Source: a bacterium (lineage in GTDB: Bacteria > JAHJDO01). From it: DNA of 8,662 nt. Made by a program: the position numbers and the translations under genes. The stretch spans positions 1 to 8,662 of the forward strand of contig JAUWOV010000074.1 of the NCBI GenBank assembly GCA_030611945.1, written 5' to 3'. Positions 3,033-8,562 of the stretch are shown here, one piece after another (within the stretch, counting starts at the first letter, position 1; each line of letters begins with the position of its first letter). Below the pieces are notes generated by a model that did no database searches, was not told the DNA's origin, and saw only the letters and a list, made by a program, of their open reading frames with translations.

Positions 3033-3078
3033 TTATTACCTAATTTATTACCTATATTAATTAGTTATTACCTAATTT
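3033..3078. repeat. Short direct repeats TTATTACCTA (three copies)
   Basis: TTATTACCTA occurs at 3033-3042, 3045-3054 and 3065-3074. The first and third copies extend to an identical 14-mer, TTATTACCTAATTT (3033-3046 and 3065-3078). The last copy contains the Fic stop codon (TAG on the minus strand, 3072-3074). The repeats fill most of the gap between the Fic gene and the glycosyltransferase start. Their role is unknown. They could be slippage products or a trace of the event that brought in the Fic gene. Confidence 0.75.
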
Positions 3079-4142
3079 CCGGTTTTGTTCCATTTTGCAT
3101 TTCTGCCACGACCAAGACATTCAATAATCCCTTGCGCCTGAAGATCCTTGAGCACCCTTCGTATCATATCAATGCCGACACTGGGACATCTCCGCAGTAT
3201 ATCGGCGACACTGAAATCACCGGGGAAACTTTTAACGGCATCTTGAACCATTGCTGTCTTCTCACCCCTTGGTTGAGGCAGCTTTCCCAACCTTTCTTCA
3301 AATTCTTTATAAGCACTCTTAAGTATGAAGCAAATAAAATTGATATAATGCCATGGATCTTGTTTGCCTTCATGCCATCCTTCTGAACTCAGCTTTAACG
3401 TTTCGTAGTATCTTTCCTTGTTCTGTTCGATAAGACGTTCGAGACTTATATATCTTCCGATTTCAATTTTCAGATGATAGCACTGCAGAAGCATCAGCAA
3501 TCGGGAGACTCTGCCATTTCCGTCACGGAATGGGTGTATGCACAGAAAATCTAGATTGAATGCCGACAGCGCTATTAGCGGATGGACATTTGTTTTGTTT
3601 ATGCATTCCTGCCATGAATCAATCAGTTCTTTCATGCAGAAAGAAGTTTTGTCAGCAGGAACCGTTCGAAACCGTATGCTGGACGTGCCATCACGGTGCT
3701 TTTCGATGATATCGCTATTTTTTTCTTTGTATTTGCCTGCATCCCATATCTCGCCGCGTGTCAGACGATGCAGCTTTTTGCAGGTATTCTCCGTAAGTGA
3801 CAACTTTGATCCCATATCATGTATAAGATTGAGCGCTTCTCGATAGCCTCGAATCTCTTCCTCTGACCTGTCGTGAAGAAGCGACTTGCCAAAGATGATG
3901 GTGCCAATGCGTTTTTTATCAACCTCAATACCTTCTATGCGATTTGATGACACCGCACTCTCAACAAGAGCATGCTCTTTCAGTGATTTCAGTCTCTGAG
4001 GCGACTGCCTTTTATAAAGCGCCTGCCTGCCTTTTGCCTCACTGATGTCGGACAAATACCACGATGTCGTTGCAGGAATTGTATCGAGCCCTGCGATGAA
4101 CTGCTTTAATGTCATTATGCCGATAATATCACTCCTTTTCAT
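3072..4142 (-). CDS. Fic-family protein with built-in inhibitory helix and C-terminal winged helix
   Basis: Fic proteins usually transfer AMP from ATP to a hydroxyl of a target protein. This 356-residue version has a Fic N-terminal domain with an S-x-x-x-E-G inhibitory motif (SSNRIEG; S66, E70, G71), in which the glutamate normally blocks productive ATP binding; that makes it a self-inhibited class II Fic. The catalytic motif HPFRDGNGR (H203 to R211) is intact. Residues about 296-352 (DAVKSFPGDFSVADILRRCP onward to ECLGRGRNAKW) look like a winged helix, so it may bind DNA. Start choice is uncertain. From memory of the family, an ATG at codon 10 (4113-4115, MTLKQFIAGLD) fits relatives better, but AAGGAG lies 16 nt from it. 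Sampled lines are about 43-52% GC against about 32-33% in neighbours, which suggests transfer. No separate antitoxin gene is adjacent. The target is unknown. Confidence 0.9.
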   Translation of the reverse strand: MKRSDIIGIMTLKQFIAGLDTIPATTSWYLSDISEAKGRQALYKRQSPQRLKSLKEHALVESAVSSNRIEGIEVDKKRIGTIIFGKSLLHDRSEEEIRGYREALNLIHDMGSKLSLTENTCKKLHRLTRGEIWDAGKYKEKNSDIIEKHRDGTSSIRFRTVPADKTSFCMKELIDSWQECINKTNVHPLIALSAFNLDFLCIHPFRDGNGRVSRLLMLLQCYHLKIEIGRYISLERLIEQNKERYYETLKLSSEGWHEGKQDPWHYINFICFILKSAYKEFEERLGKLPQPRGEKTAMVQDAVKSFPGDFSVADILRRCPSVGIDMIRRVLKDLQAQGIIECLGRGRNAKWNKTGN

Positions 4143-7713: not shown

Positions 7714-7815
7714 GCTTTAAATATTACTCTAATTGGGGTAAAAAGGGAAGAAAGAATTTGTTGCGGCGAAAAAAATTCTGTGATACAGTAAGATATAAAT
7801 AAGGGGGTGTACACT
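7714..7815. other. Divergent intergenic region between tsaE and the DUF5678-like gene
   Basis: This AT-rich spacer of about 100 bp must hold promoters for both directions unless transcripts enter from outside. On the plus strand TTGCGG (7761-7766) with GATACA or TACAGT (7782-7789), and TATAAA at 7794-7799, are weak candidates, none with both boxes near consensus. A short palindrome CTGT-GAT-ACAG lies at 7778-7788. The purine-rich AAGGGGGTG at 7801-7809 is the likely ribosome site for the ATG at 7816. Confidence 0.5.
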
Positions 7816-8049
7816 ATGGAGAAAAGACCGAAGATTCCGCCCGAGAGATTTTGGGAAGACGAGAAATGGGCACATCGAAATTATCAGAAATTGGTAAAAG
7901 GATATGCTAATATGTGGGTGGCAGTTTTTGACAAGAAGGTTGTATGCGCAAATGAAAATTTAGGTTTGGTTGAAGAAATAATCACTAGAAAGTTTGGCAA
8001 AAAAGATGTTCCGCTAATCCATGTTGAGGACGGCGCCCATGTCTATTAG
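7816..8049 (+). CDS. Small DUF5678-like protein of unknown function
   Basis: I chose the ATG at 7816 over a GTG at 7807 because AAGGGGGTG (7801-7809) would be its ribosome site with about 8 nt spacing; the GTG is part of that site. The product has 77 residues. The first half is charged (MEKRPKIPPERFWEDEKWAH). It is followed by YANMWVAVFDKKVVCANENL and a helix-like EEIITRKFG, then the strand VPLIHVEDG. The pattern 'Y..-W-V-A-V-x-D/G-K-V-V' with a closing 'PLI.V' is what I remember of DUF5678; I cannot verify this by search. There is no signal peptide or membrane segment. It overlaps the aspartic protease gene by 11 bp, so the two are probably made together. Function is unknown. Confidence 0.8.
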   Translation: MEKRPKIPPERFWEDEKWAHRNYQKLVKGYANMWVAVFDKKVVCANENLGLVEEIITRKFGKKDVPLIHVEDGAHVY

Positions 8050-8485
8050 AATTAATCTTCAATATGCCAAGGCATTAAATCTGGAATTAATTGAGAAGGG
8101 TATTGAGGTTTGGATAAGGCGACTAACTGCACAGGTACGCTTTAAAACAAAAGATGGCTGGACACGGTCATATGAGGCAATTATTGATACGGGAGCTCCG
8201 GTGTCAGTTATCCCTCCATCCATATCGGAAGAAGTCGATAAGAATATACTTGCTGATTACGCCATTTCAGGTATCGTTCCTCATCAGGAAGCAGTATTGC
8301 CTGTAAAAGTAGCCGATGTGTGGTGTGCATTTTTGGATGAAGAAAGAATAAGTAAGTCGTTGAAAATTAAAGCATATTTGAGTACAGACCATAGAGTCCC
8401 TTTGGTCTTAGGTTTTGAGAATCTATTGTCGAAAGCAATTCTTTATAGTGATTGCAAAGGCAATAAAAGTTTTATCGAGATATAG
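8039..8485 (+). CDS. Small retropepsin-like aspartic protease family protein
   Basis: The ATG at 8039 is preceded by GAGG (8026-8029) with nine nt spacing, while an earlier in-frame ATG at 8021 has no ribosome site, so I use 8039. The product has 148 residues, the size of a single-domain retroviral-type protease that would act as a homodimer. The active-site motif is YEAIIDTGAPVSVIP (45-59), with D50 in D-T-G-A. Near the end, VPLVLGFENLLSKAIL resembles the hydrophobic-hydrophobic-Gly segment followed by a helix in retropepsins. There is no signal peptide or transmembrane segment, so it is probably cytoplasmic. It overlaps the upstream DUF5678-like gene by 11 bp. The substrate is unknown, and the neighbouring protein is an obvious candidate partner or regulator. 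No terminator is evident downstream. Confidence 0.82.
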   Translation: MSIRINLQYAKALNLELIEKGIEVWIRRLTAQVRFKTKDGWTRSYEAIIDTGAPVSVIPPSISEEVDKNILADYAISGIVPHQEAVLPVKVADVWCAFLDEERISKSLKIKAYLSTDHRVPLVLGFENLLSKAILYSDCKGNKSFIEI

Positions 8486-8532: not shown

Positions 8533-8562
8533 TTGACAATGTTTTAAAAATGTTTTTATAAT
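8533..8562 (+). promoter_or_regulatory. Near-consensus sigma-70 promoter of the LacI-family gene
   Basis: A perfect TTGACA (-35, 8533-8538) and a perfect TATAAT (-10, 8557-8562) are separated by 18 bp. Transcription should start six to seven bases after the -10 box, at about 8568-8570, which coincides with the ATG at 8569. This implies a leaderless mRNA or one with only a base or so of leader. Confidence 0.85.

What the first reader, a model, noticed from the sequence alone, without database searches (positions are those of the whole stretch)
7816..8485. Two-gene cassette: DUF5678-like small protein coupled to a retropepsin-like protease
The sequence shows a 77-residue WVAVFDKKVV protein overlapping by 11 bp a 148-residue protein with an intact D-T-G-A protease motif, with their own ribosome sites and divergent from housekeeping genes. 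Retropepsin folds are known to act as homodimers. The tight coupling suggests the small protein could be a substrate, adaptor or inhibitor of the protease. This would be a small cytoplasmic proteolysis or toxin/antitoxin-like module with no assigned function, and is my best candidate for an undescribed system.
Basis: partly seen in the sequence, partly recalled or inferred. Interest (0 to 1): 0.62.

Follow-up and report, generated by a model that had tools for sequence, protein, structure and literature searches.

The report
DUF5678–retropepsin pair, toxin–antitoxin-like
Two tiny overlapping genes, one for a protease of the HIV-protease superfamily and one for its small partner of unknown function, form a mobile pair found across distant bacteria and in archaea; at this site in sister species a classic toxin–antitoxin pair sits instead, so the small protein is probably the protease's dedicated restraint.

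Summary
Window 7816-8049 encodes a 77-aa DUF5678 protein; it overlaps by 11 nt gene 8039-8485, a 148-aa retropepsin-like protein with intact D50-T-G-A. The pairing is a rule, not chance: in 385 genomes sampled across bacteria, 28 of 45 DUF5678 hits have a retropepsin directly downstream, and one more is a natural fusion. The window's subfamily recurs in ANME-1 archaea with the same 11-nt overlap. Partners co-diverge (Mantel r 0.66, 0 of 5000 permutations). In three congeners the same site holds a Phd/YefM-PIN toxin-antitoxin pair. In a sister species another protease is cleanly missing while its DUF5678 stays; four more loci keep an intact DUF5678 beside a protease remnant without its catalytic motif. 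Some related proteases have other antitoxin-like partners (RHH-DUF5678, AF2212-like). Best reading: a toxin-antitoxin-like module in which DUF5678 binds and restrains the protease. That step is inferred; an adaptor or activator role is not excluded. DUF5678 is predicted as an ααββαβ fold without a clear PDB match. The dimeric retropepsin fold of the window protein could not be modelled confidently. No paper describing the pair was found in the library searched.

The parts
7816..8049 (+). Gene 1: DUF5678 protein, 77 aa (alternative start GTG 7807); predicted ααββαβ fold; conserved C-terminal G-A/I-H-V/I-Y tail
   Evidence: Pfam PF18929 1e-6 over cut-off; AF2 model mean pLDDT 80.8; tail conserved in the alignment
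7888..8019 (+). DUF5678 domain proper (residues 25-68), with the WVAVFDKKVV hairpin
   Evidence: Pfam match
8039..8485 (+). Gene 2: retropepsin-like (clan AA) aspartic protease, 148 aa, presumably cytoplasmic (no signal peptide apparent by eye)
   Evidence: relatives and profile tests
8039..8049 (+). 11-nt gene overlap ATGTCTATTAG, conserved in ANME-1 archaea and other relatives
   Evidence: identical overlap length and near-identical CATGTCTAYTA in L055-L058; -11 also in L007 and L011
8186..8197 (+). Catalytic motif D50-T51-G52-A53
   Evidence: D50 and G52 invariant across 20 diverse pair proteases
8402..8413 (+). Second conserved retropepsin element L122-V-L-G125 (hydrophobic-hydrophobic-Gly)
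   Evidence: G125 invariant in alignment A6
7801..7807 (+). Shine-Dalgarno-like AAGGGGG of gene 1
   Evidence: Read from the sequence
8026..8030 (+). Shine-Dalgarno-like GAGGA of gene 2, inside gene 1
   Evidence: Read from the sequence
7762..7815 (+). Stretch where homology to the congeners ends; beyond it three congeners carry a Phd/YefM-PIN pair instead of this cassette
   Evidence: BLASTN homology stops at window 7752-7766; Pfam of the replaced genes

Best explanation
This is a toxin-antitoxin-like two-gene module. Gene 2 makes a small cytoplasmic retropepsin that should cut proteins as a homodimer, each subunit giving one Asp (D50). Gene 1 makes its cognate DUF5678 partner, translated just before it from a coupled, overlapping frame. 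The partner binds the nascent protease and holds it inactive; the conserved hydrophobic or aromatic C-terminal tail, which becomes the link to the protease in natural fusions, is the likeliest contact. Loss or turnover of the partner would free the protease. Shown: pairing, coupling, co-divergence, fusion, mobility, exchange with a true TA-type pair at the same site, protease loss with partner retained. Inferred: binding, inhibition, the tail's role, and toxicity.
For: Conserved order and tight coupling (offsets mostly -14 to +3 nt) in 28 loci plus one single-chain fusion, L026; a second fusion is cut by a contig end, L152. Same overlap in ANME-1 archaea. Partner and protease distances correlate, r 0.66, 0/5000. 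In G001, G002 and G003 the same tsaE-proximal slot holds Phd/YefM + PIN. In G004 the protease of the DUF5678-protease-hom locus is cleanly absent while DUF5678 stays (hom side 95% identical). Solitary DUF5678 dN/dS is about 0.07-0.15. L020, L024, L025 and L028 keep an intact DUF5678 beside protease remnants without D-T-G. RHH + DUF5678 in L037 (FitA-like RHH 7.7e-4, below cut-off), its protease overlapping by 4 nt. AF2212-like partner of a related protease (1.3e-9), a family Makarova et al. 2009 predict as antitoxins (PMC2701414). Patchy distribution: one member in a genus sample of about 15 genomes. Both genes under purifying selection in ANME-1 (dN/dS 0.05-0.11).
Against: The window's DUF5678 protein has no recognisable DNA-binding domain. 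No DUF5678-type pair was found on plasmids or viral contigs with the queries tried. The slot exchange is one site; regions between divergent genes may simply accept any cargo. DUF5678 on FtsZ and other long proteins fits a docking-domain role at least as well. Toxicity, binding and inhibition are untested. A solitary DUF5678 could serve another protease in trans.
Confidence: 0.5

Rival explanations
1. Adaptor or activator: DUF5678 is an obligate cofactor that brings substrates to the retropepsin or helps it dimerise, so the pair is a small regulated proteolysis machine rather than a TA-like module.
For: Same linkage, fusion and co-divergence evidence. DUF5678 also sits at the C-terminus of an FtsZ and of two long unknown proteins, as a docking tag would. 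The few characterised bacterial family-A2 peptidases are reported to involve other protein factors (PMC11957791).
Against: DUF5678 is kept under purifying selection where its protease is gone or gutted. Exchange with a Phd-PIN pair and swaps with antitoxin-type partners are not predicted.
Confidence: 0.3
2. Substrate pair: DUF5678 is the protease's dedicated substrate, cut to release a signal or to switch off an autorepressor.
For: Tight coupling, low-confidence termini in the model, and an RHH-DUF5678 repressor-like protein.
Against: No shared cleavable linker is evident; conservation is in the folded core and the C-terminal tail. Some members are fused to the protease in the same order.
Confidence: 0.12
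3. Ordinary accessory operon without a direct functional link; adjacency reflects shared cargo hitchhiking.
For: The genes lie in variable spots.
Against: Order, overlap, fusion and matched divergence across many families and two domains of life.
Confidence: 0.03

Closest known systems
Type II toxin-antitoxin modules (for example Phd/YefM-PIN, HicAB, MazEF)
   Same: Two small co-directional overlapping genes, small partner first, patchy and mobile; occupies the slot that a Phd/YefM-PIN pair holds in congeners; partner swapping; partner outlives effector.
   Different: The effector is an aspartic protease of the retropepsin superfamily, not an RNase, kinase or gyrase poison; the window's partner has no known DNA-binding domain; toxicity untested.
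Xre + COG2856 Zn-protease pairs (predicted TAS component, Makarova et al. 2009, PMC2701414)
   Same: Small regulator paired with a protease in a mobile two-gene module.
   Different: Metalloprotease (HEXXH) with an HTH repressor; here an aspartic protease with DUF5678. The main text of that survey does not mention COG5550 or retro-type proteases.
Prokaryotic single-domain clan AA peptidases (COG5550/COG3577; Rickettsia APRc; Pseudomonas RimB)
   Same: Same protease superfamily; the pair-protease profile matches the solved ApRick (APRc) and Ddi1 proteases.
   Different: In what I read, APRc and RimB are not described with a DUF5678 partner; RimB acts in the RimABK ribosome-modification operon (PMC11957791).
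Pfam DUF5678 (PF18929)
   Same: The small protein is a member.
   Different: The family is listed as of unknown function; its regular pairing with retropepsins is reported here from this analysis.

Membership tests
Pfam DUF5678 (PF18929) | HMM match over the curated cut-off | tested here: met
   28.9 bits against 23.2
Retropepsin-like proteases (clan AA) | D-T/S-G catalytic motif within a hydrophobic strand | tested here: met
   IIDTGA, D50 and G52 invariant
Retropepsin-like proteases (clan AA) | Hydrophobic-hydrophobic-Gly element near the C-terminus | tested here: met
   PLVLG, G125 invariant
Retropepsin-like proteases (clan AA) | Sequence-profile similarity to known retropepsins | tested here: met
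   Pair-protease profile against ApRick protease 1.5e-8, Ddi1 1.8e-8 and retroviral proteases; window against a profile without its subfamily 1.2e-4, hhalign 95%. The window subfamily alone is weak (0.45).
Retropepsin-like proteases (clan AA) | Dimeric retropepsin fold | tested here: inconclusive
   Model of the protease part has pLDDT about 32-60; no multimer prediction available
Retropepsin-like proteases (clan AA) | Proteolytic activity | not testable with these tools
   Needs biochemistry
Type II toxin-antitoxin modules | Two small co-directional, tightly spaced genes, partner first | tested here: met
Type II toxin-antitoxin modules | Patchy distribution and mobility | tested here: met
   Sporadic within genera and phyla; bacteria and ANME-1 archaea; different flanks within ANME-1; slot exchange
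Type II toxin-antitoxin modules | DNA-binding, autoregulating antitoxin | tested here: inconclusive
   None recognised in the window protein; RHH-like N-terminus in relative L037
Type II toxin-antitoxin modules | Carriage on plasmids or phages | tested here: inconclusive
   No hit for DUF5678-type pairs; related cyanobacterial protease pairs are on plasmids
Type II toxin-antitoxin modules | Toxicity of one gene neutralised by the other | not testable with these tools
   Needs expression tests

The most novel reading that the evidence does not exclude
A cross-domain toxin-antitoxin family whose toxin is a cytoplasmic retropepsin and whose antitoxin superfamily is DUF5678 (including divergent long-hairpin relatives), with occasional single-chain forms in which DUF5678 acts as an inhibitory prodomain.
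Probability: 0.35. Interest if true: 0.82.

Novelty: new variant of a known kind. Interest (0 to 1): 0.62.

Why it matters
Retropepsin-like proteases are widespread in bacteria and archaea, yet few have a known role. A standing partner would give most of this branch a testable function at once, assign a role to a Pfam family of unknown function, and, if inhibition is shown, add an aspartic protease to the effectors used by toxin-antitoxin-like modules.

Tried and rejected
PADLOC, NCBIfam and PHROGs gave nothing useful for either protein. Weak DUF5678 hits inside HicB antitoxins, an RND transporter and a sigma-54-like protein were judged spurious by context; a HicB sequence scored no better than shuffles against the DUF5678 profile. 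The DUF5678 model has no clear PDB match: Foldseek best E 1.7, VIA best Z 3.7; this does not show that the fold is new. To look at both domains together I modelled the pair as one chain by reading the overlap with one four-letter word (TAGA=R). The DUF5678 part folded as before, but the protease part was low confidence, so I did not search it or read an interface from it. Viral-contig and most plasmid searches found no relatives. GC content does not mark the pair as foreign. The LacI-side flank has no counterpart in congeners beyond a 27-base match, so the exact borders of the exchange are unknown.

Full report
Observation. The window is a whole 8662-base contig of a 1.66-Mb draft genome. At 7816-8049 lies a 77-residue gene and at 8039-8485 a 148-residue gene, sharing 11 nt (ATGTCTATTAG), each with a Shine-Dalgarno-like site, and both divergent from tsaE and tsaB. 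The first is a DUF5678 protein over Pfam's cut-off. The second has IIDTGA and a later PLVLG, but only a sub-threshold Pfam aspartyl-protease hit. An alignment of 20 proteases from such pairs matches solved retropepsins: ApRick protease 1.5e-8, Ddi1 1.8e-8, and retroviral proteases. A profile built without the window's subfamily still finds the window protein (E 1.2e-4 among 5000 shuffles; hhalign 95%). I therefore accept it as a divergent retropepsin-like protein. Its fold is not confirmed: the model of the protease part is poor.

Pairing. In 385 genomes sampled across bacteria (the window's genus included), 45 places match DUF5678 at E up to 1e-3 in 33 genomes. I read the DNA around all of them. 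In 28 a retropepsin ORF follows directly on the same strand, usually starting within -14 to +3 nt of the DUF5678 stop; in one (L026) the two are a single 214-residue chain. The rest are solitary, remnants, contig ends or spurious hits. The 28 are not all independent (L014 and L022 are near-identical congeners). Conversely, of the 27 best hits with the protease profile (E below about 1e-18), all but one at a contig edge have DUF5678 or a DUF5678-like ORF upstream or fused (profile confirmation of the weak ones). A further protease group has a long-hairpin small protein upstream that is a distant DUF5678 relative by profile comparison (hhalign 95%, 9 proteins). Distances among partners and among proteases correlate strongly over 31 pairs (r 0.66, 0 of 5000 permutations reach it); shared organism history was not controlled for.

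The window's own subfamily. Close relatives (34-40% identity) are in four ANME-1/Methanophagales archaea, two KSB1 bacteria and, decayed, in a Latescibacterota genome, and in two genomes of another bacterial phylum (L146, L147). In the four archaea the overlap is again 11 nt, within the near-identical CATGTCTAYTA, and the partner ends SGAHVY, against DGAHVY in the window. The overlap ties the partner's HV-Y tail to the protease's start, but a tail of this kind ([VI]-[HQ]-[IV]-[YF]) also ends many partners whose genes overlap differently or not at all, so the tail itself is probably under selection. Both genes show dN/dS near 0.05-0.11 among the archaea. One archaeal copy lies between prefoldin and ftsY; neither gene was found on the other three, shorter contigs.

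Behaviour in the window's genus. The protease has no counterpart in the four congeners. In three of them the sequence is alignable to the window up to about 7761-7766, just before gene 1, and the place of the cassette is taken by a Phd/YefM antitoxin (3.7e-7 in the best case) and a PIN toxin (3.8e-22), themselves overlapping by 4 nt. The same genome has a second, very different DUF5678-protease pair before the homoserine dehydrogenase gene (L001). In sister species G004 that locus keeps DUF5678 and the dehydrogenase (90% and 95% DNA identity) but lacks exactly the protease. Four other loci (L020, L024, L025, L028) have an intact DUF5678 followed by a protease remnant lacking the catalytic motif. 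Solitary DUF5678 genes remain under purifying selection (dN/dS about 0.07-0.15). I found no intact pair-type protease clearly left without a partner, apart from one lower-scoring case (L095) where none was recognised.

Links to antitoxins. One DUF5678 partner carries an N-terminal ribbon-helix-helix stretch (FitA-like, 7.7e-4, below Pfam's cut-off) and overlaps its protease by 4 nt. A related protease follows an AF2212-like gene (1.3e-9), a family predicted as antitoxins (PMC2701414). Cyanobacterial relatives follow a different small protein, on plasmids with an 8-nt overlap, once close to HicAB.

Mechanism. The best-supported model is a TA-like module: DUF5678 binds and restrains its cognate retropepsin. 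Physical contact is inferred from fusions and co-divergence; inhibition is inferred from partner retention after protease loss and from the exchange with a TA pair. The main rival is an adaptor or activator; it is helped by DUF5678 domains at the C-terminus of an FtsZ and of two long unknown proteins. I call it 'TA-like', not a TA member: toxicity and neutralisation are untested, a DNA-binding antitoxin was not recognised in the window, and plasmid or phage carriage of the DUF5678 branch was not found.

Novelty. In 5.39 million open papers DUF5678 appears once, in an unrelated plant study. Searches on retropepsins with toxin-antitoxin terms found no description of the pair. Subscription papers were not covered, and neighbourhood databases may list the association. 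Hence: a new variant of a known kind, with good interest because a simple expression test decides it.

Noticed in passing
L046 163-1683 (+), G315: A full-length FtsZ with a C-terminal DUF5678 domain (Tubulin 1.2e-51, FtsZ_C 1.9e-23, DUF5678 1.3e-5). One genome only; its two phylum mates showed no such long ORF in the DUF5678 search.
   Followed up: partly
L096-L099, L087; plasmid loci L141-L143: Cyanobacterial-type retropepsins follow a different conserved small protein (MSLAELL..DLSQSDKL..PYDATEAANIL), on plasmids with an 8-nt overlap; no Pfam family.
   Followed up: partly
L088: A related retropepsin directly follows an AF2212-like (predicted antitoxin) gene.
   Followed up: partly
L053/L019 573-1616: One DUF5678 gene followed by two tandem retropepsin genes.
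   Followed up: no
L101, L105, L108, L109, L111, L114, L117, L118, L123, L130, L131, L135: A large set of retropepsins with a long-hairpin small protein upstream, without a Pfam family, distantly related to DUF5678 by profile comparison.
   Followed up: partly
L010, L018, L008: Solitary DUF5678 genes in the window's genus lie among toxin-antitoxin-like genes by eye (HicB-like, DUF433-like, MNT-like ORFs).
   Followed up: no
window 3072-4142 (-): A Fic-domain protein (Fic/DOC 2.4e-15) among housekeeping genes.
   Followed up: no
window 8533-8562 (+): A perfect sigma-70 consensus promoter (TTGACA-18-TATAAT) before the start of what reads as a LacI-type regulator cut by the contig end.
   Followed up: no
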